Source: Mitosporidium daphniae | Taxonomy: Eukaryota > Microsporidia | Length of the DNA stretch: 27,387 nt | NCBI RefSeq assembly: GCF_000760515.2 | Contig: NW_013546161.1 | Span: 1-27,387 of the forward strand | Reading direction: 5' to 3' | Part shown: positions 1 to 27,387 of the stretch, one piece after another | How the letters are laid out: the number at the start of each line of letters is the position of its first letter | Position numbering within the stretch: position 1 is the first letter of the stretch | The notes under the pieces: generated by a model | Databases searched by the model: none | What the model saw: only the letters and a program-made list of their open reading frames with translations | Told to the model about the DNA's origin: nothing | Translations under genes and position numbers: made by a program

Positions 1-967
1 GAGCGTGAAAGTATGCTCTTGAATTCAAAAAGAAGGTTTGAATGTGCAGCAGCGACAATGGTTCCTTTCCTCATGTCGACCGATGTAGAAGTGATGTTTT
101 CAACGACTCCACCAGCCTCCTTTACAATCAAAATACCCGCCGCTATATCCCACGAATGAATGCCAATCTCGTAATAGATGTCACCAGCACCCTCGGCAAT
201 CTTAGTGAGATTCATTGCTGCGCTTCCAAAGCTCCTTATCCCATGAACGGGAATTTGAATTAGCGAATGCATTATGGACGTAATGCATGCCTTATACTCG
301 GGCACATAGCCCATCATTGGAAGATTCCATTCAGTAACAACAAGACAGTCAGACATGCGTTTTTCAGAATTGCTCATGTGTGAATAAAGCGGCAGCCTTT
401 GCGGTGTGGAGCTTTCGTTCTCATCAACCAGATATGCCCCTTTTCCTTTGACCGAATAATACAACTAAACATTCGAATTAAATTTAGTACTTTCTTCAGC
501 GTCGGATGATAGATAATTCCAATGAGCGGGTCAGGACACTCGCCAGCCATTTTAGGAACCTCAACAAGCGCCAGCGAGACGCAACTATGGGACAAAAGAC
601 CATGTAAGAAATTAATGGTCCCATCAATGGGGTCAAGTACCCAATAATAGCATGGTCCATTTTGATTGCAGGAAACATTATTTGTGGGCACTTGAATGCC
701 CTCTTCGCCTAGAAAACTTTATGGTCAAAAATAATGATACAATATGTGGGGAAATGCGAGAGACAGTTTTGACGCGATTTCCCTCTCAATAGCAATATCT
801 CTCTCCGTTACCAGATCCGTTGGAGAATTGTTTTTTTTGGAAACTTTGAAAGTGTCTTGAGTTGTGGAATCCCTTTTTTTATGGCAGAAATTTTGGGTTG
901 AAACATCTTTTACAATCAAAATAACTTGCTCCAAAATAGAGTCAACATCAAGGAGCGCCATATCCAT
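1..967 (-). CDS. Inositol monophosphatase family protein (3' end cut by window)
   Basis: Mg-dependent phosphatase that hydrolyses inositol monophosphate, recycling inositol. After splicing, the frame reads SPTDLVTERD, then FFLGEEG, then the metal-binding WVLDPIDGTINF, and near the C-terminus IHSWDIAAGIL and KEAGG. All are hallmark IMPase motifs, with catalytic Glu, Asp and Thr present. Two introns restore the frame: 717-740 (24 nt), which rejoins FPHI to FFLGEEG, and 465-490 (26 nt), which rejoins HPTLKK to LYYSVKGKGAYLV. The start is the first ATG of the open frame, at 967; the upstream TTG was not used. Human IMPA1 (277 aa) ends shortly after the RRVIAAN-like segment, here RKGTIVAAAHSN, so only about 10-20 residues are missing off the window edge. 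Between SILEQVILIV and SPTDLV the protein is somewhat long and basic, with no clear extra intron. The exact substrate (inositol phosphate or PAP) cannot be told from motifs alone. Confidence 0.92.
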
Positions 968-1197
968 CAAGCCTACAACGCGAAAATAAAATAATTTGAT
1001 GCGTCATAAAAATTGATTCCACTGATTTCCGAATTTACGATTGCAATTCCAATCGATCGATGGTTGGCGGTTTAAATGGCCGCAGCCCCATTTGCTATAA
1101 TAGCGTGCAATGCTGCGCCAATTTGATATTTATTGATTTATTGATTTTTCGGACATATCAAGTACGATTGCTATAAATGGTGGAAATGCAGTCTTGC

Positions 1198-1625
1198 TTA
1201 CCTTTGAAAGACAATGGACCCGAGCGGTGCAGCCATGCAAATGCCCACGAACAAAATCACCTTTAAAGCCAAAGTTCGAGGGTTGGAAATGCTAAAAGGA
1301 AAAACCTACAATAAAAATGGCAAAAAACATCTTGGGGACCGTTAACTTCAAAGTGGTAAACATCTGGATTGTGTTCAGCATGTCCATGATGATCATCATT
1401 TGCGTGTGTTTCCTTGGTAGGGATGAAGGGACGAGAATTTTCTACAGAATAGGTTTGATCGTTGTTTTCAAAGATGCCAGCTAAGTGACCTGCACGGCTG
1501 TTCAGGCCATACATGGCAATAAGAGATGTCGTCTTTTTGTGGGCACAATTATACAAGATTGGATTGTTTATCAGCAGCAGCCCCGATCGGCGACGAATGA
1601 TTGAGGGCGCAACAGACGCAATCAT
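1198..1625 (-). CDS. COX7C: Cytochrome c oxidase subunit VIIc (yeast Cox8) family
   Basis: Nuclear-encoded small subunit of mitochondrial complex IV. Removing the 23-nt intron 1306-1328 joins VNGPQD to VFPFSISNPRTLALK, followed by one transmembrane helix (VILFVGICMAAPLGSIVF) and the end QR. This matches the COX7C/Cox8 pattern: a PFS[IV].N entry, a basic residue, then a helix with a central AAP/ATP. The spliced product is 134 aa, against roughly 60-80 aa for known members. The extra N-terminal part begins MIASVAPSIIRRRSG, rich in Arg with no acidic residues and therefore presequence-like. It continues into a His/Asp-rich linker (DDHHGHAEHNP). I found no intron that shortens this extension and keeps the frame. 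The first ATG (1625) was chosen; a second lies about 38 codons downstream. The gene implies a respiring mitochondrion. Confidence 0.75.
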
Positions 1626-1694
1626 CGCGACAATACGAATTGAAAATTGGTTCAAATTTTATTTCCAACATTTATTGTTGTGACATTCAATTCA

Positions 1695-1736
1695 TTATTC
1701 TCAATGCGCTATTCTCGATCTGCTATTCTCAACTGG
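1695..1736. repeat. Three 14-bp imperfect direct repeats
   Basis: Three consecutive 14-bp units sharing a TATTCTC core (TTATTCTCAATGCG, CTATTCTCGATCTG, CTATTCTCAACTGG). They sit between the GPx stop (1743) and the COX7C start (1625), so they lie in the COX7C 5' flank. They could be regulatory or simple replication slippage. Confidence 0.6.
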
Positions 1737-1742
1737 CCATCA

Positions 1743-2430
1743 TCAAGCTGCGTCCGCTTTTTCATTTAAAAGGGCTACAATCTTCTCTTCAAACGTCATT
1801 GGCTCTTCATTGGGACCAAATCTTTTGACGGGAATCCCATATCGATTGACAAGAAACTACAATTAATGGGCCGAAAGCTACCTTGGTAAAATTCCACTTG
1901 ATCGCATTGCCTAGCGTTCCTGGGCAAGCTTTTTTCAAGTACGAAAATAAGGGATGTGCTTCGCTTCCATTAACTTTGATCGGATGAAACATTACAAGCT
2001 TTGTTGAGAATCCGGACGAAAAATCTCTAATCTGGCATGTGGTTCCGGATTCTAATTTTGACTTCAACATGTACCTTGCTTTGCGAACTAAAGTTGACCA
2101 TGTGATCAAATTACCTGATTGCACGGGAAAAGAAGCACTTTTAGGCCTTGCGAATCGTACTTTTCAGCCAACTTGCCCAATTGCTCATAATTATTGGGAG
2201 TATATCCACAATGAGAGGCAACATTGACCACCAGTAGGACCTTGGGGTAAAACAAAAAATGCCACCTTATCCTTGAACTCCGAGAGAGATATAATGCGAT
2301 CCTTTTCCAGGCTTTCAGCTTCAAACTGGTATATCTAAAATTACGGGATAAGCATTGCCTTTTCGGCGGACATTTGATGGGCAAATCTTCTGATTTGTTT
2401 ACCAAGACGATTATTAAATAAGACTTGCAT
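1743..2430 (-). CDS. Glutathione peroxidase, cysteine type (5' exon unresolved)
   Basis: Thiol peroxidase that reduces hydroperoxides using glutathione or thioredoxin. The spliced frame gives [12 protein letters not shown], then [18 protein letters not shown] with the peroxidatic Cys (not selenocysteine), then LLFPCNQFAKQESG with the catalytic Gln, and KWNFTKFLVNRYG with the Trp/Asn pair; it ends at a TGA. Four introns are needed: 2241-2265 (25 nt), 2088-2114 (27), 2052-2074 (23) and 1857-1881 (25). They leave a 13-nt micro-exon at 2075-2087 encoding FAKQ plus one base. The conserved part starts at 2334 and is preceded in frame by TAG, so an upstream exon must supply the start. ATGs at 2430 ([19 protein letters not shown], presequence-like) and 2373 are candidates, but no GT-AG junction I tried restores the frame. 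The 5' boundary given is therefore provisional. Confidence 0.85.
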
Positions 2431-2434
2431 CAAC

Positions 2435-2679: not shown

Positions 2680-3925
2680 TTAATAATATGTTATCGGGGG
2701 CATGTTGTAGGACGGCTGGGTCATAATCAGATTTACTTCGCATCCGAAATCCATCAGCTGTAAATGTGCATCTGCACCCTCTGTTATGTTTCTCGACACG
2801 CTAAGCAGCTTCAGGGCCACCATTGACTTTACAATGGATGACAGGGCAGGGTCGTTAGAGATGTCCTCCTCCATCTACATGCATAAAGGTTGGTTCGCTC
2901 CATACTTGGATCAGAAATTGGCTTGCAGAATATCCGGATCTCATGAACGAATCCAAGAAACTGCCAATGGCTTCAGGGCCAGATTGCACTGCAGAGCGAA
3001 ACCCATCTATCACTTTGCTCGGAAGCACCTACAGAGAAGGAATAAATTGCGTGCAATACTCCTGTCATTTCTTTTAGGCTTTCAATGGCAATGCCATTGG
3101 TCCCGATGAACCTCTTGATATTTTGAAGATAATTGATCGCTTTACGAAGATCGCCGAAACTCCTGTCAATAAGAAATTCCAGGCCCTAGCTCGTCAGAAA
3201 CGATCAAACCTCATCGGCACACTGTATGTTTTCTTCGTTGCAAATAAATTGAAGACGCTTAACAGCGGACGCCTTGTCAATTGCCTTGAACCTAAATTTG
3301 GCACATCTTGAAATCAAAGGCTCGATAATCCTAATGAAAGTCCGAAAATTAGCTTACTTGTGCACGTAATTACAAAGGATGCAAAACCGCGTTGTCGAAG
3401 AATAAGCCTCAATAATTCGCCTCAATGCTGCCTGGGCATCATACGTCATACAATCGGCCTCGTCCAAAATGATCAGCTTGAAAAAGGGCGGAGAATTGAT
3501 GAGCGTTTTTGCAAACGACTTGATTTTCTCTCTTACCACGCCGATTCCACGCTCGTCAGAGGCGTTCAGTTCAAGTATCCGTTGGCGATAAGCATTCTCT
3601 CTAAAGATAAATCATAAGGAGCGCCACCCAAATAACTCCCTTGCCAGAGCAAGTACAGTCGATGTTTTTCCTGTCCCGGGAGGGCCATACAACAAAAGAT
3701 GTGGAAGCTATGCATCAGCAAAAATGGAGTGTCGTACATCTCCGGAAACAATTGATCTCCTCAATAACGCAACTACCTCCTCCTGTGATGCGATTTCGCC
3801 AAGCGACTTTGGACGGCTAATAATCTCGTTAAGCATTAAAAATACTATTTTTCCACCCATTGACGAGTGGAGGAAGTGTGGCTGACTGATGGCGACGGGG
3901 GCCGACTTTCGCTGGTTGAGCTCAT
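2680..3925 (-). CDS. RFC4: Replication factor C small subunit (human RFC4 / yeast Rfc2 type)
   Basis: AAA+ subunit of the RFC clamp loader, which opens PCNA and places it on primed DNA. After splicing: [16 protein letters not shown], the Walker [11 protein letters not shown] (about residues 61-70), [13 protein letters not shown], Walker [11 protein letters not shown], sensor 1 TRFCILCNY, and the arginine-finger motif [14 protein letters not shown]; then the collar domain. Seven introns: 3817-3845, 3708-3737, 3601-3627, 3331-3357, 3186-3209, 3029-3059, 2875-2905 (24-31 nt). The first recreates the YRPKSL box exactly. The product is 348 aa, near human RFC4 (363) and yeast Rfc2 (353). NASDERGI followed by VVREK and the adjacent residues favour this subunit over the other small subunits. 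A further in-frame 21-nt GT..AG stretch (2716-2736) near the C-terminus may or may not be spliced. The start at 3925 faces MPP10. Confidence 0.95.
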
Positions 3926-3974: not shown

Positions 3975-4898
3975 ATGCATTTTTCTAATGAAGACGATCC
4001 GTTGGCATCGTCGACTTTCCGGCGCTCCCAGCGCAAAATGGCATCGCAAATAGAAAAGTTGGAGCGAGAAAGCGTGGCAAAAAAGTCCTGGACACTTCTT
4101 GGGGAGGCAAGTTCCAAGCAAAGGAGCCAAAACTCGCTTCTTGAAAATTTTGTTGAATATGAATCCAACGCCAAGGTAATTATTTGTACTTCTTTCCATG
4201 TAGCCTGTATTGGAGGTTACTCAAGAAGTCACCGATTCGATTGAACAGATTGTTAGAAAGAGGATTATGGATTGCGTTTGGGACGACCCATCGCCACCGT
4301 CCTTTGTCAACCACGTTCCAAGGCCCAAACAAGACCTTCCTGAGGTTTCGACCGAAAAGTCTACAGCGTCCTTGTCCAAGCTTTATGAAAATGATTATCT
4401 GGAAAAGAAGGAAAGCCAAAGGCCGCTGTCCACTTCAAAAATTACTCCGGAAATCGCATCTCTATGGGACCAAGTATCGCAAGCGTTGGACACACTTTCT
4501 GGATTCCAATTTGCCTCTGCCATGGATTCCGTGCACTCAATATCATCGCAAGCACAACTACCGTCTTTTTCGACAAATGAAATTGAAAAGGGAGCCGCAA
4601 TTCACGCTGCCTCATTGGCTGTAAGCGGCGCGTCGTCACATACGCCAGAAGAAATAAAAAGGCCCTTGCGTACTCCTTTGAAATCTGAGCTTGAGCGAGA
4701 CAGTTCTAAAACCGAGCACCAGCGGGCCAAACGGCTGCGGAAGATCAAAGGATCTAAAAGGCCACATGCCTCCTCTTCTCTGCTCAATACGCTCTCCAAG
4801 CAAAAGGTACCAATTTTTTCGTGATTTTATTTTAGAATGTCAAAGTTCATGCAAGTGCGATAAAAGGCAAATCAAAGGCTCGCAGCGCCAACCGATAA
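3975..4898 (+). CDS. MPP10: MPP10, U3 snoRNP / SSU processome component (short form)
   Basis: MPP10 works with IMP3 and IMP4 in the SSU processome at the early pre-18S rRNA cleavage sites, in the nucleolus. The sequence aligns to the C-terminal conserved region of MPP10: QIEKLERESVAKKSWTLLGE, RSQNSLLENFVEY, the I..RI.D..WDD block (QIVRKRIMDCVWDDP), LSKLYENDYL, and LWDQVSQALDTLSGFQF, with a Lys/Arg-rich tail. Introns 4176-4203 (28 nt) and 4807-4835 (29 nt) restore the frame; the second adds a final basic exon ending at TAA 4898. The protein is 288 aa, against about 590-680 in yeast and human: the long acidic coiled-coil N-terminus is absent. I chose ATG 3975 (MHFSNEDDPLASS); ATGs at 3924 and 3867 are in the same frame but overlap the RFC4 coding exon. 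Confidence 0.88.
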
Positions 4899-5098: not shown

Positions 5099-6114
5099 TT
5101 ATTCAAGCCAAAGAATATTCAACGCCTTGCTCATAGATGCCTTCCAATCAAACCGGGGCAACACAAGTGGGGGTGTGTCCGAAATGGGAGCGCTAGATTT
5201 CTTTTTTTTGGAAAGCCACCTAGAAAGCATCTCCAACGGGGTATTCGATATCGCGTATCTTTTAAGAAGCATTTGTTTGTCCGAAAGCGCATCCTGTATA
5301 TTGTGCCATGCGATATCCTATACATTACTACAAAAATACCAAACCCAAATCTCGTTTTTTGTTTGCCAGCCAAAAGCGGTGTCCTCTGAGACCCCGCAAA
5401 TTATATACAGCCGATTGATGCGTTCATTTGGACCCTTCCATTCAAGAAATGGGGTGTCACTGCCAATATCTGCGAATTTAAAGCACCGACGCACCTCCAC
5501 AATTGTAGCCTGTCTCTTCATATAATTCTCGAGTCGCACAGTGTGCCATAGACTCGCCCTCACTTAGTTTTCCCTTGGGAAAGGCCCATGTATCTCTTGA
5601 CCGATGCCCCCTTACCATCAAGCACTTTGCATTAAAAAAAAATATACCTTTGTTAAGGACGGGTTGAGAAGGATCACACCAGCAACGGGGACCGATCTTT
5701 TATGTGCAGAGAAAAATTCTATCAATTGCGGTATCTCTGCAACCAAATGCGAAAGGGCAGGGTCTCTGTTTAGCATTTGACGGCAGAATTTCGGAAACTT
5801 CATCGAGGGGTAGACGTCAGCCTTTTCTGAGCTTGTTCGAAGATGGTCATCATAGAACCAGTGAGCAGCCTCCAAGTGAAAAAGCAGCCGATCAGCGGCC
5901 AATTTGTCGGCCTCTGGAAGGTTCACAATAAACCGACTAAACATCAGCACATCAAAACAAACCAACAAATGTCATCCAATGCATTGTCTATCGAACATGG
6001 AAATGTGGCCAATGATGACGATGGCGCTGAAGCTGACAAAGAGGGCGCTAATACGGCTGATGATGGCACTGAAGACGAAAAAGAGGGCAGTGATACTGCT
6101 GATGATGGCGGCAT
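5099..6114 (-). CDS. DCP2: mRNA-decapping enzyme DCP2
   Basis: Nudix hydrolase that removes the m7G cap in 5'-3' mRNA decay, with Dcp1 as activator, in the cytoplasm and P-bodies. The N-terminal regulatory domain is seen as NALDDICCRFIVNLPEADKL, then EAAHWFYDDHLR and SVPVAGVILLNPSLTK. The catalytic domain has RDTWAFPKGKLSEGES and a complete Nudix box at about residues 165-187 (G x5 E x7 RE L x EE x G Y). A conserved end LYIICGVSEDTAF and EIWDIAW (box B) follows. Introns: 5937-5962, 5625-5647, 5470-5494 and 5318-5344 (23-27 nt); the spliced product is 304 aa. Before the domain lies a Ser/Pro/Ala-rich stretch (residues 2-38) built from PSSAV/APSL/PSSS-like repeats. The ATG at 6114 is the only start in frame with the spliced ALDDICC box. 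The long C-terminal regulatory tail of many fungal Dcp2 proteins is missing. Confidence 0.95.
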
Positions 6115-6150: not shown

Positions 6151-7016
6151 ATGAATTCTACCATGTGGATCGGAAATTCAAATTGTTCGTCCTCTTACTC
6201 GGACCCGGCAGGTTTCCTTATCGAAAGAATTTCAACATACATTGGCGACAAGATAAAAGCAGATGGTCTTTCGCGAAAGATTTTCAACAGCTGTCAAATT
6301 ATCACCAAAGTCCTCAATACATACGGGTAAGCAAGTTTTTTAAGCAGCCTTAGCATCGGATCAATTGCCTTGAGTTTCAATGGCGGAAAAGATTGCACTG
6401 CACTTCTGGTCCACCTTCTTGCCTGCATTGGTGGTAGGAGTCCCCTCCCACTTTTGTATCTCCACAATGATGATCAATTTGAGGAGGAGTGGGAATTTTC
6501 TTGCGCCTTGACATCAATGTAGGAGGATACGAAACTTTTATTGAAATGTAGGATTGGAGCAGACAAGGTGCAACTGCATCGACTTGAATGCACAGATTTA
6601 AAGGATGGGCTTTCCAGCTTTCTTCAAAAATATCCCAACATCTCTGTGCTCTTCCTAGGTGTCCGATGTACAGATCCACACTCCAGTATGGATAGTATAC
6701 CCTGACAGGCCAGATGAGCTAAAACCGATCCAAATGACGGACCCCGGATGGCCCCAAGTCCTGCGCGTCCACCCACTTCTCGACTGGACATATTCTGAGA
6801 TCTGGCTCTTTCTAAGGACGCTTTCGATTCCTTACTGCACGCTGTATGACCAGGGGTACGTAATGAACAAGTTAACTTAAATGCAGATACACCTCCATAG
6901 GGGGGAAAGAAAAAACAAAACCTAACCCGGCTTTACGGTGCACCCGTGAACAAGGTAAATACAAACCGGCATACGACCTTTTGGACGATTCTTTGGAAAG
7001 GGCAGGCCGGAGCTAA
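6151..7016 (+). CDS. FAD1: FAD synthase (FMN adenylyltransferase, PAPS-reductase-like domain)
   Basis: Transfers AMP from ATP to FMN, making FAD. The spliced protein carries the PP-loop [16 protein letters not shown] (about residues 62-77), [58 protein letters not shown], and [15 protein letters not shown] with NPALRC near the end. These match human FLAD1 (C-terminal half) and yeast Fad1. Four introns: 6327-6353 (27 nt), 6519-6551 (33), 6686-6713 (28) and 6856-6886 (31). The third uses the AG at 6712-6713; the earlier AG at 6708 breaks the frame. The product is 248 aa, a single-domain enzyme without the molybdopterin-binding domain of FLAD1. The start at 6151 is in frame with a second ATG at 6163. 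The C-terminus ends RAGRS, convergent with RPS29 after 48 bp. Confidence 0.93.
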
Positions 7017-9420: not shown

Positions 9421-10975
9421 ATGAAATTTAATCTCTGCCAGACCTGTCTTTCCATCATCACTTCCCAAAATCTTGCTATTGAAAATGAATCCTATTGTGT
9501 AATTAACTTAAACGATCCAACAGGGCACATATGCTTTCTATGTTGTAATAGTGCATCCTCTTCATTTCAGACAGCCTTCTCTTCCGTTTGTATCTCTCAG
9601 CTATTAAAAGAGTATGGATTGATACTGCCTACATTTTCGATTTCCATATTTCTCCCGCTCTGCTTTCCCTTTCGAGCATTGCAAATTCTCAGATCAATTA
9701 TAAGGTAGCATTTTTAAATTGGCCAACTGTAGAGAAAACGACAGGGAAAAATATCTTTTCCTTTTAGATGGAATTAGCCGCTCATTCAAGCAGGCCTTCC
9801 GGTCTTTATTTGCAGCTTCCCTTGAAAAGGCAGAAAATTTTCAAATGAAGCAAGATCAGTCGGTACGCTGTAGTTTATAAAAGTAGAGTCCTTTTAAGAT
9901 TGAGGTGAGACTGATGAGTGTGGAGGCTTCACTTTTGATACTGGAGAGGCCTCTTACCTGCATTTCCCTTTGTGAAAGGCCAAAGAAATATCAAATGAAA
10001 TCCAATTTGGTAAAATGCTGCTTTTTATTCCATAGAAAAAGCTATGGATCGCCAATCCGGCCAGCGTGGCTGAATTTACCCTTTCAATGCAAGAAAATAG
10101 AGAAATAATCGAAGTTTCCATGTCCGAGCCCATTTTAACGTTCTACCATGCCCCAATGTACGTCGCTGGTAGGTATACAAAATCACAAAGGAATATTGCG
10201 CAGTCGCCATGGATCAACAAATCCTTGCAATCCGTATCCGGATATATTGATGCCATTGTGACGAAGCACTTTCAGGCAGATGGGTGCAAATTCTGCTCTG
10301 CTGGAAGAGAGGATATTGACGTAAAGATGTTAGGCGAAGGGCGGCCATTTTTGCTGGAGATCTGCAATCCAAGGCGCTATCTTTTGCTTCGGGCACATGC
10401 CCAGTCCGGGGCCTCTTTGCCCCCGCAAAATTCGCCTCTTGATGTCCTTAGAAAGCTTCTAGACACCATTTGCAGCGAAGTTCTACAAGCATCTTTGGGT
10501 TCTGTATCAATTATACCAAGACTCTGGCTTGTTCGTGGCACAGCCTCTGCACAGCTTATCAAAGTTGGAGAAGTGCACCGGCCAAAGCTTTACAAAGCCA
10601 CGATTTCCTCAAAAGTTCCTCTTGTGGGATGTAGAAACTTTAAAACGCTTTCCATTAACCAGAAAACCCCGATTCGCGTTCTCCATCGAAGGGCGAATCT
10701 CAACCGCAGTAAGATGATTTATGAGTGCGAGCTTTCTCCTTTTCCAGAGGATGGCTCGTTTGTAGAAGTGACCATTAGAGCCCAGGCGGGAACGTATCGA
10801 TTTTCATCCTCATCGTAGATATATTAAGGAATTCGTCCATGGAGATTTTGGGCGCACCAGCCCCAGTCTTGGTGACCTCTTATTTGGGGTTTCCGACGCC
10901 TGCGAGCTTCTTGAACTGGACGTGCTGCAAGTGGAAATGCCAGAATGGCCTCCCAACGAGGACATCTTAATTTAA
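9421..10975 (+). CDS. PUS10: tRNA pseudouridine synthase PUS10
   Basis: Stand-alone pseudouridine synthase that modifies positions 54/55 of tRNA in archaea and animals. The N-terminal zinc motif is LCQTC...ICFLCC (C-x2-C twice). The catalytic half reads MYVAGRYTKSQRNIAQSPW, then FCSAGREDIDVKMLGEGRPF with the catalytic Asp in REDIDV, INQKTPIRVLHRRANLNRSK, and RAQAGTYIKEFVHGDFGRTS. The end is EWPPNEDILI. Introns: 9705-9732 (28 nt), 9863-9886 (24), 10010-10035 (26) and 10794-10818 (25). The last one recreates the invariant QAGTYIKEFVHGD motif. The spliced length is 483 aa, close to human PUS10 (529). The THUMP-containing middle is present but weakly conserved. Baker's yeast has no PUS10. The stop is only 16 bp before the aprataxin start. 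Confidence 0.93.
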
Positions 10976-10991: not shown

Positions 10992-11744
10992 ATGAAGCCT
11001 AGCGTCCCAAAGCCTGCGGGACTGTCCTCAATCATACCTATGGGCTTTACTTCTGGTTCGATGTCGAGATTTTGCTTATCTTCAGACTCGCCGCAAAAGC
11101 TGCCGTCACCACAGAAAATGCCAGCAAACAACCATTGGAATACGGCATTAATGGCGTATGTCCTTGATGAAGAGGGCCATCGTGAAGAAATCATCAAGTC
11201 CACGCCGCTTGCGCTTATCATCATGGACAAGTACCCAAAGGTAACAGCATCTCTTATTGCATAGTCATCCATTCATTGGTTGGTGCTTCCAAAAGCATCC
11301 GAAATCGATTCTATCCGGGATTTACGGCGCGAACACATCCCACTGCTGCAACACATGCAAGAGCTTGCAAGGTCGGAGCTTAAAGAGCGGCATCCAAACT
11401 TAGATATGGACTCTGTGCTCTACGGATTCCATTCAATACCATCGATGAGGTAGATACGGCAAAGAGCGATAATCCCTAGGCTCCTACACATGCACGCTCT
11501 TAGTAACGATTTTATCTCTGATTGTCTAAAGAAAAGGGAACACTGGAATTCGTTCAACACAAGCTTTTTCCTTTCTGTGGAAACGATTTTGGCAAAACTG
11601 GGCACCACTGGAATGCTGGGCGATATTGATGAGGCCAAAATGTATTCCCTGCTAAAACTGCCGCTAAAATGCAGTTTCTGTTCGCTGAATTTTACATCGA
11701 TGCCGTCGTTTAAGGCTCATATTTATGAACACAGAGCAAAATAG
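10992..11744 (+). CDS. APTX: Aprataxin (HIT-domain DNA deadenylase with zinc finger)
   Basis: Removes AMP from 5' ends of abortive DNA ligation intermediates; yeast Hnt3. The spliced sequence shows NHWNTALMAYV, LALIIMDKYPKSSIHWLVLP, FHSIPSMRLLHMHALSNDF, LKKREHWNSFNTSFFL, LLKLPLKCSFC, and a C2H2 finger (C-x2-C-x12-H-x4-H) ending HIYEHRAK. In the HIT motif the nucleophilic and third His are kept (LHMH). The first His is Leu, which I recall as common in plant and fungal aprataxins. Introns: 11241-11264 (24 nt) and 11450-11479 (30 nt); the product is 232 aa. There is no FHA domain, as in fungal and plant forms. Start ATG 10992 lies 16 bp after the PUS10 stop. Confidence 0.94.
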
Positions 11745-11866: not shown

Positions 11867-13072
11867 CTAAGAACGAGTCAGGTCTGCCAACTCTGGCGTG
11901 GTCTCCACGTCTGCATGTGGGGATGGCATAGGTTGGCTGGCCTCTCGGCATGCGTTTTCCTCCCTTAAATACCTTGGTTTTCTCAATGTAAAGCTTTTAA
12001 AAAAGGCCCTTGGGATGCAGATTTTCGGAAAGGGGCGCGGTTGGGAAGGATCATAAGGCTGTTTTGGCTGCATCATCTTTGGCGCATCTGTGTTCCAAAT
12101 CCGTTTTGCCTCAGACAGGCGCTCTGTGTCTGAGGCCTCCCTCAAGTCGCCATTGATGTCTCGTACAAGCATTAGCCGATCCTATTGAAAAGTGAAATCG
12201 GATTTTCATACCCTTGGATTTTGACAATGCCCAATATCTACGATCAAGAATGGCACCCTGGACCGCTCGCAGGGGTCATTCCTAATCAATTTCTGGGACT
12301 GTGGCACGTCTTTGTCGGGTTTCACCAGTGGACGTGTGGAGAGATAGTCGCGTGCGACAACAACGTCATACTCCAAAATGGCGCCTGCTTGTTCCGGAGT
12401 CAGCTCCTTTGACTCGTGGATTTTGACAAACGTGGGCTTTAGCCATTGATTTGGTTTCTTTAATATAGAATCGATGCGATAGGAAAAGATTTCTCCCTCC
12501 TTGATGTCTATTTGACTGCCTGACGAAGAAAGTCTCTGAGAAAACGGAAGATAGTCATTAACATTGACCCCAACGGCCATCTCCATGCGGGCGACATATT
12601 CCTTGTCGATTTCAAAATTTCTTGCCACCATTTCGTCCTGCAGCATCTTCATCCGCAAAATCGCCTCTATTCGCTCAATGGATAGGCAAAAGGCCCGAGA
12701 AAGACGGCGAACGGTCCAATATAGCGGACTTTCTTTATACGTTCCAAATATCAGATTCTTCATGTTATCCGAGATAGGAACGGTATTTTTAAACTCCTGA
12801 TTGTATGGGAATGGCTATGGATTAGGGTAAAGGTAAGGGCATCTTGAACATACCGATGTTGGACCAAAGAATATGGGGCCTACGGGATTCTCCTTTGCGT
12901 ATTTGTGCACGATGGGAATCCACGCCTTTAAGTTTGAAAAGAGCTCTTTTCTTTTTATGGAATTTGGATGTTCCGTAAGGCGTAGGCCATTTTGCACACG
13001 AGGAACATCCGATGGATATCGAGCCCTGCTGGAGTAGCCAGCACGGGCAGCCTTGACACAATTGCCAGCCAT
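11867..13072 (-). CDS. Probable mitochondrial small-subunit ribosomal protein (Bot1p/mS45-like)
   Basis: Likely a fungal-type mitoribosomal small-subunit protein of the Bot1p ('eukaryotic mitochondrial regulator') family. The best block is YKESPLYWTVRRLSRAF followed by LSIERIEAILRMKMLQDE: a 'SP..WT... ...RV.AILRLK.LE' pattern typical of that family, then an acidic and Lys/Pro-rich tail. The N-terminus MAGNCVKAARAGYSSRARYP is basic with few acidic residues, presequence-like. Introns: 12815-12853 (39 nt, the longest of the short class) and 12182-12211 (30 nt). Both are phase 0 and rejoin PTS to PFPYNQE and NPR to DRLML. The product is 378 aa, ending at TAG. Family assignment is from recalled patterns and is moderate. 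Confidence 0.6.
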
Positions 13073-19987: not shown

Positions 19988-20358
19988 ATGCTGGTCAAAA
20001 TCAAGGTTTGTCGCTCGTTTTACTTAATCCGTAGACGCTCTCGGGAAAGGAGGTAATGTCTGCATCATGCTAATTTTAGATTGAAATCGACATCGAGCCT
20101 TATGATAAGGTATGGAATTGCACCTTCCTCAACATAAGATTCTCAAATTGAAGGAAAAAATTGAGGAAAAGGAAAGAATCCCACCTCAGCAGCAAAGGTA
20201 TGATGTGTCGTCTTTTACCACACAGGTTGATATATGGAGGCAAACAGATGTATATCCCTTCAACGCTTTATCGTAGGAATGATGATAAGATTGCCTCAGA
20301 TTACCATATTGAGGGGGGCTCCGTATTGCATCTGGTTTTGGCTTTGAGAGGCGGCTAA
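19988..20358 (+). CDS. NEDD8: Ubiquitin-like protein NEDD8 / Rub1
   Basis: Ubiquitin-like modifier of cullins. Six exons spliced from 371 bp give exactly 76 aa: [20 protein letters not shown], then [40 protein letters not shown] and [16 protein letters not shown]. Ala72 (LALRGG) marks NEDD8; ubiquitin has Arg72. Ile44 and Lys48 are conserved. Introns: 20006-20034 (29 nt), 20053-20079 (27), 20110-20138 (29), 20198-20225 (28) and 20250-20276 (27). Exons 1 and 2 are 18 nt each, exon 3 is 30 nt and exon 5 is 24 nt. The stop follows directly after Gly-Gly, so no C-terminal tail needs cutting off. The gene lies 42 bp after GLDC and 27 bp before POLA2, all on the same strand. Confidence 0.95.
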
Positions 20359-20385
20359 ATTGTAATTAAATTTTAAACAAATCCA

Positions 20386-22318
20386 ATGGTCGCCTCTTCT
20401 TTGGCTGCGAGTCCCGCTTCTGCTTGGCGGAAGGAGGCCATGAAAAGGTGCATTGGGATCGAATCCGATGCAGTCCTGCAGCGGTGCATATCCTATGCGG
20501 AGTCTCGGCATATGGGCATCGACACGTTTTGCAATAAGTTTGAAGCCTGGGCGTTGTCCCATTTGCACATAGAGTCTTCCATGATGCTCAATTCAAAGTC
20601 CGTTGATGACTTTTTATCTTTTGAGACGAACCAGCTTAAAGAAAACGTTGCGTCCAACACGTTGGGTGCTCCAAATCTTTTGAGCGCGTCCTCAAAAATC
20701 GCGTCTCCTCTTTCTGTAAGGAGCAAAGGCATGGTTGTAAATTATCCGGTCAATGAAATCAAAAGGACTTCCAGCTTGACCGACGTGCTTGTTTGGCCTG
20801 CCAATAGCGACCTTAACAAGATCCATGCGAACATTAATGAAAACATGGAGGCGCCCGAAATCTCCTTGTTGTTTGACACGGACCTGCCCGGGCGATACAT
20901 GAGAATCGTCTGGCCTCGAGTGGTGAAATGTAGGACGGCCCTGCCATTTAACCATGTATTCTAGGGATAAACAGAAGAATTGAAGAGTTTTCAAACTATT
21001 TCACGCTGGCCGAAGGGCATGAGTGGAGCCATCCCGGAATTCCGAGCCATGAGCCGGTTTTTTGCTATGGAAGGCTTGTCTCGGACTCTGATTCTTCGAA
21101 ATGGAACGAAAAGTCCATTCAATTGGAGTGTTCCAGAGAACTAGGTTCCGGGTGCAGGGTCCATTTAGATTTGATGGATCTCCCTGGGTTTTCCTTCATC
21201 CCGGGAGAGGTGAGTCACCAATGCTTTTAATTCGAGGTCGTTGGCTTTAAGGGCATTTCCCTGATTGACGGGTTTTATCCCACCGAGTTGCTGCCTTTAA
21301 AGCCTTTGGACAAGCCCGTGTCTACTGTGGGCGATCATTCAGACATGCACTTCAAGGCTTCAAATATCTTTTGTGCTGCTGGTCCGTTTGCCTTGGTGAA
21401 AAAATCTGACGATGGGTCCTACACCTTGGACTATGCCCCATTGGAGACCTTGTTTGGGCATATCCGAAATTCAAAGCATGCGTCGTCCTTGGTGCTGCTA
21501 TTGCTTGGGCCATTTGTCGACTCGGACAGTGTCATTTCAATGGCCCGGAATGTGATTTCATCGCCGTTCCATTCGTTCGAACAGCTGTTTAAAGAAGAGA
21601 TTTCAATCCGAATTGGGGGCCTGCTGTCATCCAAAAAAAAGATCAAAGTGATCCTTATTCCGAGCCAAAATGATGTCATTCACGACTATGTGTTTCCCCA
21701 GGCCGCCCTTTCCAGAGATGTGCTCGCCATCCCAAATGTACTGCTTCACAATTTACCGTTAGGATGTAATTGTGCTTCCAAACCCGTGTTTTTTTTATAT
21801 CAACGAGTTGGTTGTTGCTACAACCAGTGCGGATATCCTATTTGACATGAGCTGTAATGAAATTTCAAGGTCACAACTTGTTTAAGTTGGTTTAATTTCT
21901 TAGGGGTCAAGCAGATGTCGATCGCATGACGAGACTGGTAAGGCATCTTATCCAGCAGCGGAGGTACAATGGTGGCCGATTTTATTGTAGTTTTTATCCG
22001 TTATACCCGCCCTCGGTTAATGTTAACTTAGACGTGTGTAGCTCAGGGTATGGCAAGGAGGCCATGCAATCTACACTTCTGTCTTGGAACATAGCTCCAG
22101 ATCTCCTAATAATACCTTCCGCGCTTAGACATTTTGTAAAAACAGTTGATGATGTTCTTTGTATCAATCCGGGAACGCTTGTTTCAAAAGGCGGGCATAG
22201 TACGGGCTCATTTTGCGAAATTTTCGTACAGAAGCTAGGCTTTCCGCTTGTCGACTCCGACATGATCCCACATTTTGCAGATAAGAGAAGCGTCGTGGTT
22301 ATTAAATCGTTAAACTAG
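20386..22318 (+). CDS. POLA2: DNA polymerase alpha subunit B (POLA2 / Pol12)
   Basis: Second subunit of the pol alpha-primase complex that makes RNA-DNA primers. The N-terminal helical domain (IDTFCNKFEAWALSH) is followed by an OB-fold (EPVFCYGRLVSDSD, LPGFSFIPGEVVGFKGIS). The inactive phosphoesterase domain follows (IFCAAGPFALVKKSDDGSY, LLLLGPFVDSDS, VILIPSQNDVIHDYVFPQ, IVLPNPCFFYINELVVATTS, SFYPLYPP, PDLLIIPSALRHFVKTVDDV, CINPGTLVSKG). Five introns: 20930-20964 (35 nt), 21210-21236 (27), 21738-21762 (25), 21870-21903 (34) and 21964-21990 (27). The spliced length is 594 aa, against 598 in human. The 35-nt intron was placed by phase, joining VVK to WINRRIEEFSNYF, and is the least certain. The stop is TAG; the next gene is convergent after 78 bp. 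Confidence 0.93.
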
Positions 22319-22396: not shown

Positions 22397-24734
22397 TTAG
22401 CGATGTTTTGCTATGTGCTCGGAAATCGAATTTCTCATCATCGAAATGGAGCCTTCAAAGTCCAAAAGGGGAAATGGGATAGAGGGAACAATTGATGAAC
22501 CAATCTTTAGGCATATCGATTGATCAATATACCAAATGCTAAAGAAATACGCAAATGTCAGCACGTACCTTAATAGGACTTCCTCGTTTCCTATTTGTAT
22601 GGGCTTTCCTGGACCTCTGAACGGAACTGAAAGCAGGGAAAGGATAATGGCAAGTCTAACGATTCTTTCGACAACTGTTGTCGGCGTTTCAAATCCAAGA
22701 TGATATTGCTTTGGAACGACCATGGATGTCCCAGTTACCTCCACTTGAGATGTTGAAAATTCTGGAAACACAAAGCTGAAATTCTCCTTCTTCATGTGGC
22801 TGTCTCGAGAATAGGACGACCGAATGGCAAGAAAATAGTTTTGCACGAGCTCCTTGGCCTCTTCTGCCCAATCAAACGAAACCTGGTGGATTCTGGACAA
22901 CAAGGAAGAAATGGGCATTAGCAAGGAAAAAAACTCGGAAACATCATAGGATTGATGATACAAGTCAAAAAGAGCATCATTGACCGCTCTCGTTGAGCTT
23001 GGATTGACATATTCTATTATCATGTCGAAAGAAGACAGAGCATTTACATACGAAGAGTCGGTTTTGGTATCAAGACTTTGGCGAGCTACATCGGTATGAG
23101 CCAACACAGAGCAGCAGCACTGTGGCGATACCAGATGGTCAAATTCAAACGGCAGCCTTTTGGACTTAAAAAGCGGGGAATGAATCCAGAAAATAGAATT
23201 TCGGGACAGTTGCATTGCTAAGGGCACTTCCGCGACATGGCTAGTCTTTCCAGAGCCGGCATCGATATATTTCTGCATCGATTGCACAATGCCAGCGTTT
23301 GATGCCTCCGTTGAAGACCAGGGGACATTCCACAAGTATTTTCTAAGCCTCATAATGATGTGCTTGATGAAATGGTCCTCCTGGTGGAAAATCAGCAAAT
23401 GCAGCGGCTTGCCGATCGAAGACGTCAGCGCGCTAACTACGCTAACGAAAAGGAAATAAATGGCATTTTCAAAAATACCTTATGATCAGCGCTAGCCTAA
23501 AATGTTGCGGAAAAAATGTGGTGCACAGTCCAAATGAGAATGAACCGGTCCACCGCAAAATGGCGTGTTGGAAACTCGGATTTTGTGGAGCAACTTTTGA
23601 ATTGCAAAAGTCGTGCAGTGAATAAAAGTATGGAAGCCTGTAGCATGAGGCAACAGGATGAATTTCAATTTCTGCCTTTAGGAAGGGGTAATTCGCTTCC
23701 TTGGCGCCAAATAAAAACGCCTCGTCACAAGCCTGCAATGCTGGGGTATTTTTGAAAATGCCATCTGAATATCCAAAAAGACACATCCAATTTCCAACCA
23801 GTAAAGACTCGGATTTTACGAGCTCCGTAGAAAAAATCAGCTTGGCAAGCGCAAAAACACCCGGGGTCTTTTCAACAAGCAACATTACAACATTGAAGGC
23901 CGAAATGATCCTGGCTGGGATTAGCTCTGTAAGCTGGCCAGAACAGCTTGGACAAAAGTTAGACAACAAAGAAGACCTTGGATCAATCCAAATAAGCCGA
24001 GTCGCAGTGTGATAGAAAGACTTGCACTTGGAATTGTGGCATTGAAAGCCCTGATGCAGCAATTGACCCTGTGGCGAGCTGATGGAAAGGATGACTCCCT
24101 GAAATTCGGATAATGAACGCGCCACGCTAACGCAAGGCGATAAGGAGCCATTGAGCGGCATCGGCATTTTCCCTTGCACTTTAAAATCGCCAAAAAGCTG
24201 CCGCATCGAAAATGTACACAGCATGCAGTTAAAAATAACTTGCTCCATGGAAAGCCAAGAGACGATTTCATTGAAACGGGGTTCCTCTCTATGCTGGGAC
24301 GACATAAGATTGAAAATATTGGTGTCCAATTCGTCCCAGTCATCAAATTCATGGCTATCCAAATTTGCATCAGCGTTAGGGTTAACGGTAGGAGAATTGA
24401 GAAATGGCTTGAAATCAAATAATTCGATTTTTCTATCTAGTATTCGCAAGATGGAATCTTTAAGAGCAACCTTGACGCTATCAAATCCAGCTTTAGACGC
24501 AAAAATCATGTTGGCAAACTTTGGAAACCATTTTGCAAAGCAAAACAAATTGATGGAAATCGAAATGTCAAACTTTGCATGCTGAACAAGTCTAGCTTTA
24601 GCCAAACTGTTACTTGTCGATTCACTAGGACCGCTGTGTTTTGCGAGATTGATAAGTTGCGAGATGGAAAAGTTAAAACAAGAGTCTATCGGTTCATGGT
24701 GATAACGGAGCAGATACGCCTCCAATGTTTGCAT
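22397..24734 (-). CDS. Degenerate MCM-family protein, MCMDC2-like
   Basis: The N-terminal half has the MCM OB-fold with ARSLSEFQGVILSISSPQG and a zinc motif (FQCHNSKC ... FCPSC). The C-terminal half follows the MCM AAA+ order: LALIISVVS and KPLHLLIFHQEDHFIKHII at the Walker A place, SIFWIHSPLFKSKRLPFEFD at Walker B, CSVLAHTDVA at sensor 1, then NALSSFDMIIEYVN at the arginine-finger motif, and a winged-helix end. The ATPase residues are missing: no GDPGTAKS, no DEFD, and the invariant SRFD reads SSFD. That pattern fits MCMDC2 (fly mei-217/mei-218), a meiotic crossover factor, better than MCM2-9. Introns: 23442-23478 (37 nt) and 22539-22568 (30 nt; in frame, so retention is possible). 756 aa. 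The start, 24734, lies 10 bp from a tRNA gene. Confidence 0.68.
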
Positions 24735-24739
24735 TAATT

Positions 24740-24744: not shown

Positions 24745-24816
24745 TACAGACAAAGGGACTCGAACCCTCAACCTTCTGATTCGAAGTCAGACGCGCTTCC
24801 ATTGCGCTATGCCTGT
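24745..24816 (-). tRNA. tRNA-Arg (anticodon UCG), no intron
   Basis: Complete cloverleaf read by eye: acceptor ACAGGCA / TGTCTGT (one G-U pair), D-stem GCGC/GCGC with loop AATGGAA, anticodon stem TCTGA/TCAGA with loop CTTCGAA giving anticodon TCG, variable AGGTT, T-arm GAGGG-TTCGAGT-CCCTT, discriminator A. It is 72 nt without CCA, as in eukaryotes. A run of five T follows on the transcribed strand (24740-24744), a Pol III terminator. The A and B boxes are internal. Confidence 0.95.
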
Positions 24817-24896
24817 GATTAGTGTAAACCTACATTATAATACAAGTTAAATTGTATATAATAACCACGAAATTCATTGCTGCCATTTTTACTAGC

Positions 24897-27315
24897 ATGC
24901 CTTTAAAAGAAAACGTCGCTAGAAATACCGATACCATCTTGTCCCCCACTCGTCTCAAACTTCCCTCAAAATCAATTAACACAGCATTGCTTGCTCCAAC
25001 ATCGTCGTCGATACCATCCCGCAGTTTACCTGTGCATTCAGATATTGATCGATCTCAAATTTTGTTGTCCCCTCAATTTAAGCATCTAAAATACAAGAAA
25101 GACTCGACATGCACTTCATCTTTCTCAAATTTGCTTCCTACAAATCAAATCCAAATTGGGATCAAAACCAATNACGTCTCCTCGCTGGCATCATTTGTAA
25201 ATCCAAATACAATCAAGGCAAAGCCGACGACGCCACATGTAGTTCCTCAACCACCTGCCCTTCTTTCTTCTAAAAATAAAAGAGCAAAATGGGATACAAA
25301 GGCATTTATTAATCTATTTACAAATAGGGGCTACTTGAAGATGCCATGGAGGATGTTAAAATGTACAAAAGAGAGTATTCGAAGCTGACCACTCAATATA
25401 AGGAGTCGATTGATAGACGTTTGTTTAGATTTTAATGCCGGTAGTGAATGAATTGGAATCAATAGCTTCGTCGTTAGAAAGTGCCGTTAAAGGAACCACT
25501 TCGGAAAAGCTAACTTTGAGAGAAAAATTGGAGCTAATGGAAAAATCGCTCACTGTAAAAGAGGATCCCTAACGCTTCTAGATGAATGAAAAAGAATATG
25601 GTGCACGCATTTCAAAGATAACAGCCGATTATGATGAAAGGCTATCATCTGCAAAGGAAACGAACTTCAATTTATCAAGGTCATTGGAACTTTCGCGGAA
25701 AGAGCTAGAAATGTGTAATTCTGAAATTGCCAAGCTCAATGCCACCATTGAAGCGCAAAAGTCGACTCTTTCCATCTTTGAGGGTGCAAAACTCTCGCTC
25801 GATCGCATTATATCTGTACGCTTCCATATTTATTCACATTTTAGGAGTACCAGAGAAAGGAAAAAGATTCCGAGTCCACGATTTCTCAGCTTAGTCAAGA
25901 AGTTGCCGCATTGAGGAAACTGGCCGAGGAATTAAAGACAGATGCAATAGAGGGGGAAAAACTAAGGAAGCGGCTTCATAATGAGGTGCAGGTACCATGA
26001 CATTGCTCTCATTTTGAGGAATTAAAAGGAAACATCCGTGTATTTTGCCGTGTCCGGCCTCCTTTGCCCAGTATTTGTTTTCTTTTAAACATAGCTTCTG
26101 ATGGTGTTGAGGAGTCCGCTTTACGTCCATGTGAGCAAGAGGTTGGAAACACTCAAATATCCTTCTCCTCGGATCCCCTGTCTAGAACGGAAGGAATTGA
26201 GCTTTCACAATGGATGGTATTTCGCTTTTTTTATGGTAGGATTCAACGTCGGGATGTGTAAAGCCACAATTGAAAAGCTACCCGTTTACTTTTGATCGTG
26301 TATTTAGCCCTACCTCAACGCAGGCTGATGTATTTGAAGATATTTCGCAGCTTGTTCAAAGCGTTCTAGACGGATATAGGGTCTGTATTTTCGCCTATGG
26401 ACAGACAGGGTCTGGAAAGACCTATACAATGGAAGGCCCTTCTGGCAAGCATGACCCTTCCTTTTCTGGAATGATTCCAAGAGCAGTTGCTCAGATTTTT
26501 GAAACATCCCATAATTTGGGGGTTAAAAATGGATGGAAATTCCAGTTGGAAGCCTCTTTTTTGGAAATTTATAACGAAACTATCAAAGATCTGTTGGCGA
26601 CTCCTAAAAGCATTGCTGGCTGTGTTGAAGAGCTAAAGAAGCTCGAGATTAAGCATAACCCCACAACAGGCAAGACATCTGTTTCGGAGCTAACAATCGG
26701 TACGATTGGGGCAAATATTTTACCGGCTTTAGTTCCTGTAACTTCGATTTCACAAGTTAATCGGCTTTTGAAAGAGGCATCGGAAAATCGGTCGATTGGA
26801 GAAACCAGGTGCAATGAAAGATCCTCACGAAGCCACAGGTATTTTTTGCGGTTTTATTGAAGCGTATTTACTCTGTCTGTGGCTGGGGAAAACCCAGATA
26901 CCGGTGAAAAGATTGAGGGGCTGCTAAATCTGATCGATTTGGCCGGATCTGAAAGATTGTCCTCGTCGGGGGCAACTGGAGACCGGCTCAAAGAGACCCA
27001 AGCTATCAATAAGAGTCTCTCTGCCCTTGGTGACGTGATCATGGCACTTGGTAGGGCGAGCTTTTTTATCATGTAGCAAATAAGGAATCTCATATTCCGT
27101 ATAGAAATTCCAAATTGACCTATCTATTGCAAAACTCGTTAGGAGGAAATTCCAAGACCCTGATGTTTGTAAACCTCTCTCCTTCAAAGGAATCGTTCGG
27201 CGAGAGTCTCTGTTCACTTCGATTTGCAGCAAAGGTACTAGCTTTTGAAACTTGTAACATTATGTAGGTAAATTCTTGCCATATCGGGACCGCAAGAAAG
27301 AATTTGGCGAAATAA
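24897..27315 (+). CDS. KAR3: Kinesin-14 (Kar3-type, C-terminal motor)
   Basis: Minus-end-directed spindle kinesin. The Ser/Pro-rich N-terminal tail (about residues 1-135) is followed by a coiled-coil stalk ([51 protein letters not shown]). The diagnostic kinesin-14 neck is [19 protein letters not shown]. The C-terminal motor has P-loop [13 protein letters not shown] (about 441), switch [10 protein letters not shown], switch [12 protein letters not shown], and the end [17 protein letters not shown]. Ten introns of 23-33 nt: 25302-25327, 25419-25444, 25555-25581, 25816-25844, 25992-26018, 26071-26094, 26217-26239, 26839-26862, 27051-27076 and 27235-27267. The first is GC-AG. Spliced length 717 aa; yeast Kar3 is 729. 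Base 25173 is an N, so one residue in the tail is unknown. Start ATG 24897; the earlier in-frame TTG is not used. Confidence 0.95.
25302..25327 (+). other. GC-AG intron in the kinesin gene
   Basis: 26-nt segment starting GCATTT and ending AAATAG. Its removal joins RAKWDTK to [10 protein letters not shown] in phase and is required for the 717-aa frame. No GT donor exists in this stretch. It is the only non-GT donor among the 60 introns inferred here. Confidence 0.75.
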
Positions 27316-27321
27316 AAAATT

Positions 27322-27387
27322 GCCAAAGTTGTAACCAAACTGCTAGCTGTAGCCAAATTGCTAGCTGTAGCCAAATTGCTAGCTGTA
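27322..27387. repeat. 18-bp tandem repeat reaching the window edge
   Basis: Unit gccaaattgctagctgta. Two exact copies (27352-27369, 27370-27387) follow one copy with two mismatches (27334-27351) and a partial copy (27322-27333). It starts 6 bp after the kinesin stop codon and probably continues beyond the window. On the minus strand it would read as a six-residue repeat (TASNLA). Confidence 0.85.

What the first reader, a model, noticed from the sequence alone, without database searches (positions are those of the whole stretch)
1..27387. Ultra-short introns: 59 of 60 are 23-39 nt
Every frame break in 16 genes closes at conserved protein motifs when a 23-39 nt GT-AG (once GC-AG) segment is removed. 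Most cluster at 23-31 nt. All 16 spliced genes give lengths divisible by three or correct phases. Introns this short are known in chlorarachniophyte nucleomorphs and ciliates but are below the usual fungal minimum, so the spliceosome here may have unusual spacing needs. A full branch motif is absent from nearly all of them. About 40% of the short introns are multiples of three, so there is no obvious bias against 3n lengths.
Basis: partly seen in the sequence, partly recalled or inferred. Interest (0 to 1): 0.8.

Follow-up and report, generated by a model that had tools for sequence, protein, structure and literature searches.

The report
Ultra-short introns in a Daphnia microsporidian
The genes of this water-flea parasite are interrupted by many tiny introns, almost all 22 to 39 letters long, which an ordinary-looking splicing machine should remove; the kind is already known from other parasites and ciliates, but here the introns are unusually dense.

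Summary
The window is a contig of the public genome of Mitosporidium daphniae, an early-branching microsporidian. I found 53 introns of 22-39 nt in 15 genes (median 27). A self-trained gene finder with no preferred intron length puts a sharp peak at 21-35 nt for GT-AG only: 59 of 116 introns, against 3-13 of 62-84 for six control dinucleotide pairs. A model trained without the window finds 42 of 48 window introns at 23-39 nt. Splicing restores NEDD8 end to end across five introns, and GPX, RFC, kinesin and POLA2. The genome carries canonical U1, U2 and U6, plus Prp8, Slu7, Prp18 and an SF1-like KH exon. The public RFC model has three of six introns right and errs at two. No RNA evidence was available.

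The parts
465..490 (-). intron 26 nt, inositol monophosphatase gene
   Evidence: flanking exons match adjoining Inositol_P profile positions
717..740 (-). intron 24 nt, inositol monophosphatase gene
1306..1328 (-). intron 23 nt, small unidentified gene 1198-1625
1857..1881 (-). intron 25 nt, glutathione peroxidase gene
   Evidence: join aligned to GPX4-type chains
2052..2074 (-). intron 23 nt, glutathione peroxidase gene (13-nt exon on its upstream side)
   Evidence: found by eye; join aligned
2088..2114 (-). intron 27 nt, glutathione peroxidase gene
   Evidence: found by eye; join aligned
2241..2265 (-). intron 25 nt, glutathione peroxidase gene
   Evidence: found by eye; join aligned
2335..2358 (-). 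GC-AG intron 24 nt, glutathione peroxidase gene
   Evidence: found by eye; near the start of the aligned region
2875..2905 (-). intron 31 nt, RFC clamp-loader subunit gene; beyond the end of the public model
3029..3059 (-). intron 31 nt, RFC gene; read through in public model DI09_63p40
3186..3209 (-). intron 24 nt, RFC gene
3331..3357 (-). intron 27 nt, RFC gene
3601..3627 (-). intron 27 nt, RFC gene; public model drops 3 further residues here
3708..3737 (-). intron 30 nt, RFC gene
4176..4203 (+). intron 28 nt, Mpp10 gene
4807..4835 (+). intron 29 nt, Mpp10 gene
   Evidence: by eye
5318..5344 (-). intron 27 nt, gene 5099-5521 (no Pfam match)
6327..6353 (+). intron 27 nt, PAPS_reduct/FAD-synthase-like gene
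6519..6551 (+). intron 33 nt, same gene
   Evidence: inside the full-length PAPS_reduct match
6686..6713 (+). intron 28 nt, same gene
   Evidence: inside the PAPS_reduct match
6856..6886 (+). intron 31 nt, same gene
   Evidence: inside the PAPS_reduct match
9705..9732 (+). intron 28 nt, PUS10 gene
9863..9886 (+). intron 24 nt, PUS10 gene
10010..10035 (+). intron 26 nt, PUS10 gene
10794..10818 (+). intron 25 nt, PUS10 gene
   Evidence: inside the full-length Pus10_C match
11241..11264 (+). intron 24 nt, aprataxin-like gene
   Evidence: inside DcpS_C match
11450..11479 (+). intron 30 nt, aprataxin-like gene
   Evidence: inside DcpS_C match
12182..12211 (-). intron 30 nt, Bot1p/MRP-S22-like gene
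12815..12853 (-). intron 39 nt, Bot1p/MRP-S22-like gene
13167..13201 (-). intron 35 nt, NXF mRNA-export factor gene
13522..13543 (-). intron 22 nt, NXF gene
14790..14815 (-). intron 26 nt, NXF gene
15014..15048 (-). intron 35 nt, NXF gene
19988..20358 (+). NEDD8 gene, 76 residues in six exons
   Evidence: residues 1-76 match residues 1-76 of NEDD8 chain 1ndd_A; no M. daphniae protein among the 120 hits listed
20006..20034 (+). intron 29 nt, NEDD8
20053..20079 (+). intron 27 nt, NEDD8
20110..20138 (+). intron 29 nt, NEDD8
20198..20225 (+). intron 28 nt, NEDD8
20250..20276 (+). intron 27 nt, NEDD8; 3n without in-frame stop
20930..20964 (+). intron 35 nt, POLA2 gene
21210..21236 (+). intron 27 nt, POLA2 gene
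   Evidence: join aligned to a POLA2 chain
21738..21762 (+). intron 25 nt, POLA2 gene
   Evidence: join in the aligned region (2-residue gap beside it)
21870..21903 (+). intron 34 nt, POLA2 gene
   Evidence: join aligned
21964..21990 (+). intron 27 nt, POLA2 gene; 3n without in-frame stop
   Evidence: the unspliced reading has a 9-residue insertion here relative to POLA2 chain 8d9d
22539..22568 (-). intron 30 nt, unidentified gene 22397-24734
   Evidence: no Pfam match
25555..25581 (+). intron 27 nt, kinesin-14-like gene
25816..25844 (+). intron 29 nt, kinesin gene
25992..26018 (+). intron 27 nt, kinesin gene
   Evidence: at the edge of the KIFC1 alignment
26071..26094 (+). intron 24 nt, kinesin gene; 3n without in-frame stop
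   Evidence: poorly aligned part
26217..26239 (+). intron 23 nt, kinesin gene
   Evidence: poorly aligned part
26700..26732 (+). intron 33 nt, kinesin gene
   Evidence: join aligned to KIFC1
26839..26862 (+). intron 24 nt, kinesin gene
   Evidence: join aligned
27051..27076 (+). intron 26 nt, kinesin gene
   Evidence: join aligned
27235..27267 (+). intron 33 nt, kinesin gene
   Evidence: end of aligned region

Best explanation
These are real spliceosomal (U2-type) introns of the microsporidian Mitosporidium daphniae, shrunk close to the shortest length a spliceosome can handle. U1 pairs with a weak GTA-type 5' site. U2, with SF1- and U2AF-like factors, picks a degenerate branch point usually 6-11 nt upstream of the last base of a TAG 3' end. 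That leaves roughly 15-21 nt between the 5' site and the branch A. The enzyme core looks ordinary as far as it was checked; what is unusual is high intron density combined with very short introns and weak signals. Shown: the sequence pattern, its GT-AG specificity, length peak, branch motif, restored protein families, and the presence of three snRNAs and several splicing proteins. Inferred: that the RNA is spliced exactly at these sites, that shrinkage reflects deletion bias down to a functional floor, and that retained introns are cleared by nonsense-mediated decay.
For: Organism: the window is a whole contig of 27387 nt and a window protein matches DI09_63p40 [Mitosporidium daphniae], on a contig of 27387 nt; contig C59 is 115,468 nt, the longest M. 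daphniae scaffold in a table of PMC5701793. GT-AG-specific length peak with flat prior and six controls, longer-trained comparison, held-out test on the window. Joins: NEDD8 1-76 to 1-76 over 5 introns; GPX over 5; RFC over 6; kinesin motor; POLA2; full-length PAPS_reduct and Pus10_C matches. Introns are 36% G+C against 45% for coding. Branch motif. U1, U2, U6 above gathering score with unaltered 5'-site-, branch- and ACAGAGA-pairing stretches. Prp8 in a 2419-aa open frame, Slu7 (39), Prp18 (40), SF1-like KH exon (77).
Against: No RNA reads were available, so no splice event is shown directly. The SF1-HH profile found nothing, though that search was silent in all controls. U2AF large subunit matched only below cut-off, with a candidate at C78:30896-31625. 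The gene finder missed 4 of 5 GPX introns and mis-called others, so counts are rough and single boundaries can be off. Two in-frame TAA codons in glycine decarboxylase are not explained by introns. The share of 3n introns in the window (26 of 53) is above one third, a pattern that PMC5014332 (passages) reports for Tetrahymena ultra-short introns, some of which it suspects to be annotation artefacts. Introns in genes without homologues rest on the gene finder alone.
Confidence: 0.95

Rival explanations
1. The frame breaks are sequencing or assembly errors, or decayed genes, and the GT-AG segments were picked because some short GT-AG pair can always be found.
For: GT and AG dinucleotides are common; simple motif-distance counts show only a weak excess (1.0-1.5-fold for GTANG...YAG in the bins from 24 to 38 nt, with a similar value at 78-80 nt). 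The glycine decarboxylase frame does have two unexplained in-frame stops.
Against: Other dinucleotide pairs close breaks far worse and, with a flat prior, show no such peak. Errors would not place 22-39 extra nt with a U1-like 5' site, a branch motif and TAG end where homologues have no residues, five times in 76 codons of NEDD8.
Confidence: 0.02
2. Introns exist but are longer; the gene finder or reader splits long introns into short ones around false micro-exons.
For: 17 of 166 calls exceed 45 nt and two window regions remain unresolved.
Against: With a flat prior GT-AG gives 49 calls of 45 nt or more, the six control pairs 47-66, so these are background. In NEDD8, GPX, RFC and kinesin the exons between short introns encode conserved residues.
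Confidence: 0.03
3. The splicing machine itself is altered (changed snRNAs or lost second-step factors) to accept tiny introns, as may be the case in heterotrich ciliates.
For: A table in PMC9505925 lists Slu7 and Prp18 as not found in Stentor coeruleus (passage); heterotrich introns are 15-16 bp (PMC10245619, passage). No U4 or U5 family search was made here, and most spliceosomal proteins were not checked.
Against: U1, U2 and U6 look canonical in the stretches that pair with introns; Prp8, Slu7 and Prp18 are present.
Confidence: 0.12

Closest known systems
Encephalitozoon cuniculi introns (PMC3629993, passages; PMC2483917, passages)
   Same: Microsporidian GT-AG introns down to 22 nt; branch motif; short introns with canonical ends.
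   Different: E. cuniculi has only a few dozen introns (34, later 37) of 22-76 nt with strict motifs (CTAAYTT in most). Here about 1.5 introns per kb of coding sequence (149 in 123.6 kb), a narrower range and weak motifs.
Paramecium ultra-short introns, about 25 bp (PMC5014332, abstract and passages)
   Same: Ultra-short introns, weak 5' sites; in-frame stops enriched in 3n introns (only suggestive here).
   Different: In most intron classes of the ciliates studied there 3n lengths are under-represented (Tetrahymena at 22-44 bp is an exception); here they are not. PMC2483917 (passage) reports no branch signature in Paramecium; here one is detectable.
Chlorarachniophyte nucleomorph (18-21 bp) and mikrocytid (16-17 bp) introns (PMC10245619, abstract and passages)
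   Same: Intron shrinkage in endosymbionts or parasites to a narrow size range.
   Different: Those are shorter and tighter; mikrocytid introns are conserved in sequence and their spliceosome is strongly reduced. Here the range is 22-39 nt and motifs are degenerate.
Stentor tiny introns (PMC9505925, abstract start and table passages; length 15-16 bp from PMC10245619)
   Same: Exceptionally small spliceosomal introns.
   Different: Slu7 and Prp18 are listed as not found in Stentor; both are present here.

Membership tests
U2-type spliceosomal introns | GT-AG (rarely GC-AG) ends with specificity over other dinucleotides | tested here: met
U2-type spliceosomal introns | 5' site compatible with U1/U6 and a U1 snRNA present | tested here: met
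   GTA in 42 of 52 window introns; U1 83.6 bits, U6 90.8 bits
U2-type spliceosomal introns | branch-point motif upstream of AG and a U2 snRNA present | tested here: met
   about KYTAAY; U2 137.2 bits
U2-type spliceosomal introns | removal from mRNA | not testable with these tools
   no RNA reads held; only indirect, from restored conserved proteins
Microsporidian short introns (Encephalitozoon type) | very short length | tested here: met
   22-39 nt
Microsporidian short introns (Encephalitozoon type) | few introns with strict motifs | tested here: not met
   149 short introns in 123.6 kb, CTAAC in 4 of 149
Ultra-short introns under translational control (Paramecium type) | 3n introns depleted and enriched for in-frame stops | tested here: inconclusive
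   3n not depleted (58 of 149). Stops in 48 of 58 against 32 by shuffling; among introns that a stop-neutral score would still find, 20 of 30 (3n) against 18 of 53 (others), p 0.006, but the two other frames have 14 and 22 of 30 in the 3n set and 28 and 30 of 53 in the rest
Minor (U12-type) introns | U12 snRNA, AT-AC or strict ATCC ends | not tested
   no U12 search made over the genome

The most novel reading that the evidence does not exclude
M. daphniae is a fossil-like intermediate in microsporidian intron evolution: introns were first shrunk to about 27 nt while still dense (some 5,600 if the sampled density holds over the 4.66 Mb held), and only later were most lost and the survivors given strict signals in Encephalitozoon-like species. 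Its ordinary-looking spliceosome, with Slu7 and Prp18 kept, works at a 5'-site-to-branch spacing of roughly 15-21 nt on weak signals, with translation-based clean-up of retained introns.
Probability: 0.45. Interest if true: 0.65.

Novelty: new member of a known kind. Interest (0 to 1): 0.45.

Why it matters
It shows that a parasite close to the root of Microsporidia carries dense, near-minimal introns, which bears on whether intron shrinkage came before intron loss in the lineage with the smallest nuclear genomes. It gives a natural set of weak-signal introns near the lower size limit for testing spacing rules of an apparently ordinary spliceosome. Practically, gene models that miss such introns lose genes or domains: the public RFC model lacks the C-terminal domain that the spliced model has, and no M. 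daphniae NEDD8 stood among the 120 best database hits listed.

Tried and rejected
Simple spacing counts of 5'- and 3'-site motifs: too weak to decide. First gene-finder settings with maximum intron 400 and rare gene starts merged neighbouring genes through long false introns; transition settings were then changed. The second attempt timed out with no output and was rerun in parallel with changed round numbers and fewer control pairs. SF1-HH search: no match in this genome or any control. Search of viral contigs for a relative of the pyruvate kinase: 24 pattern stretches, none a relative. The GC-AG intron at 18755-18781 and a 42-nt version at 18740-18781 were rejected because the segment aligns without a gap to a solved GLDC chain. 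A model check of the kinesin motor was started in the wrong frame and is not used; the kinesin evidence is. Literature: Haag et al. 2014 (the genome paper), PMC10158995 and PMC6349667 are not held, so whether M. daphniae intron lengths are already in print is unknown; the listings showed no paper about them by title or abstract start, and I opened passages of only some of those listed (PMC4589312, PMC7017984, PMC13174016). The claim of a translation-based filter was weakened by my own frame control.

Full report
WHAT WAS EXAMINED. The window is the whole contig G000:C107 of a 4.66-Mb, 147-contig eukaryotic assembly. A spliced window protein hits 'DI09_63p40 [Mitosporidium daphniae]', on a contig of 27387 nt, at 99% identity over 69% of the query. 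The largest contig I fetched from, C59, is 115,468 nt, which equals the longest M. daphniae scaffold in a table passage of PMC5701793 (I also read part of its introduction). NCBI places the species in Microsporidia incertae sedis. I analysed 123.6 kb in all, window included.

ARE THE SHORT INTRONS REAL? I wrote a two-strand gene finder that learns coding statistics from long open frames and starts with no opinion on intron length. With a flat prior of 12-250 nt it finds 116 GT-AG introns, 59 of them at 21-35 nt. The same procedure with GA-AG, GT-AC, CT-AG, AG-GT, CT-AC and TG-AG gives 8 of 84, 9 of 82, 6 of 76, 3 of 77, 6 of 62 and 13 of 80 in that range, and lower likelihoods (GT-AG had one more training round). 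With equal rounds and a trained prior GT-AG leads the best of five controls by about 547 log units; in that setting the TG-AG control has 27 of 89 introns at 21-35 nt, the most of any control. Trained without the window and then applied to it, GT-AG leads the best of six controls by 116 log units and introns, 42 of them 23-39 nt; with a flat prior 27 of 43 are 22-39 nt, against 1-5 of 21-30 for the controls.

In the 123.6 kb the final run has 166 introns; 149 are at most 45 nt and all of these are 22-39 nt, median 27; 143 start GT and 6 GC (one of the six, 18755-18781, I reject below); 119 end TAG. The other 17 are longer and are probably errors. In the window I keep 53: 46 from the GT-only run after dropping 18740-18781, four GPX introns found by eye, and one each in POLA2 and NXF, plus one in Mpp10. 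Range 22-39, 44 of 53 at 23-31 nt. By my reading of the alignments, about 30 of the 53 joins lie inside regions aligned to homologues; the rest rest on the gene finder. The clearest case is NEDD8 at 19988-20358: five introns of 29, 27, 29, 28 and 27 nt in a 371-nt gene. Its 76 residues match residues 1-76 of NEDD8 chain 1ndd_A; the alignment printed, to ubiquitin, is ungapped over 3-76. The glycine decarboxylase frame is the exception: its two in-frame TAA codons lie in stretches that align to a solved GLDC chain, so the 18755-18781 call is dropped.

WHAT DO THEY LOOK LIKE? 5' ends are mostly GTA (42 of 52). An unsupervised motif search of the 149 intron interiors finds about K-Y-T-A-A-Y at log-likelihood 53 against 11-17 in six shuffled sets; its A lies 6-11 nt before the final G in 112 of 149 introns (computed from the distances). 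YTNAY occurs in 113 of 149 against 68 after shuffling, YTAAY in 38 against 18, exact CTAAC in 4 against 2; in the 58 introns with YTRAY the A lies 15-21 nt from the 5' end in 41. Introns are 36% G+C, coding sequence 45%.

THE MACHINE. U1, U2 and U6 are each found once above gathering score: U1 83.6, U2 137.2, U6 90.8 bits, with unaltered ACUUACCUG, GUAGUA and ACAGAGA stretches. Prp8's PROCN domain sits in an uninterrupted 2419-aa frame. Slu7 has a predicted 24-nt intron of its own. Prp18 is present. A KH exon of the SF1/BBP type passes its cut-off, although the SF1-HH profile found nothing. A U2AF-like candidate on C78 is below cut-off. U4, U5, U12 and most proteins were not searched.

THE THREE-N QUESTION. 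58 of 149 introns have length 3n (p 0.16 against one third), so length itself is not avoided. But 48 of those 58 hold an in-frame stop, against 32 expected after shuffling, while 3n+1 and 3n+2 introns match expectation (20 against 21.0, 20 against 20.5). A gene finder sees stop-free 3n introns less easily; 35 of 51 stop-free non-3n introns would still beat retention on score. Restricting to introns that a stop-neutral score would find leaves 20 of 30 against 18 of 53 (p 0.006), but the two other frames have 14 and 22 of 30 in the 3n set, and 28 and 30 of 53 in the rest. I call this suggestive only. Stop-free 3n introns do exist: the POLA2 intron 21964-21990 shows as a 9-residue insertion relative to POLA2 chain 8d9d when left in.

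PUBLIC ANNOTATION. The public RFC protein P0121 has 248 residues against 328 in my model. It agrees at three of six introns, loses three residues at 3601-3627, reads through 3029-3059 and ends before the sixth; it lacks the Rep_fac_C match that my model has. No M. daphniae protein appears among the 120 listed of 828 NEDD8 hits, and the best identity listed is 82%. So short introns were partly used in the public gene set, and partly missed, as far as two genes can tell.

COMPARISON. E. cuniculi introns are 22-76 nt and few, with strict motifs (PMC3629993, passages). Mikrocytid introns are 16-17 bp, nucleomorph introns 18-21, heterotrich ciliate introns 15-16 (PMC10245619, abstract and passages). 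PMC2483917 (abstract and passages) argues that intron-poor genomes evolve strict signals, and short-intron genomes weak ones without a branch signature. M. daphniae is dense and short with weak signals, as that rule predicts, but keeps a detectable branch motif. A table in PMC9505925 lists Slu7 and Prp18 as not found in Stentor (passages); here both are kept. Paramecium 3n introns are enriched in stops (PMC5014332, abstract and passages).

VERDICT. Real, and of a known kind. The specific value is the combination in a deep-branching microsporidian, which makes a shrink-first, lose-later order of events testable. The listings showed no paper on these lengths, but the genome paper is not held, so I make no claim of priority.

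Noticed in passing
16946-19945 (+): Glycine decarboxylase (P-protein) is one continuous 1000-codon frame with in-frame TAA at 17777 and 18764 while the alignment to GLDC chain 6i34 continues through both. GCV_H-like exons exist on C72. Decayed gene, assembly error or readthrough: unresolved.
   Followed up: partly
L017, L020, L023 upstream of U2, U6, U1: Counted from the start of the Rfam match, the three snRNA genes share CCATAA at -54, -60 and -53 and TATAAA at -25, -29 and -25; the pair with a spacer of 20-32 nt occurs 0 times in the other 123.6 kb on both strands. Looks like a shared snRNA promoter.
   Followed up: partly
L029, L030, L031 (C56, C80, C118): The Prp18 gene and the 3.3 kb fetched around it exist in three copies 99.97-100% identical: recent duplication or assembly redundancy.
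   Followed up: partly
L018 and L019 (C47, C84): A 1.9-kb stretch with a sub-threshold U2-like match occurs in two copies at 99.9% identity.
   Followed up: no
24745-24816 (-): tRNA-Arg (TCG) gene of 72 nt.
   Followed up: no
27330-27387: 18-nt tandem repeat, 3.2 copies, at the contig end, perhaps why the contig stops.
   Followed up: no
25173: A single N in the predicted coding frame of the kinesin gene.
   Followed up: no
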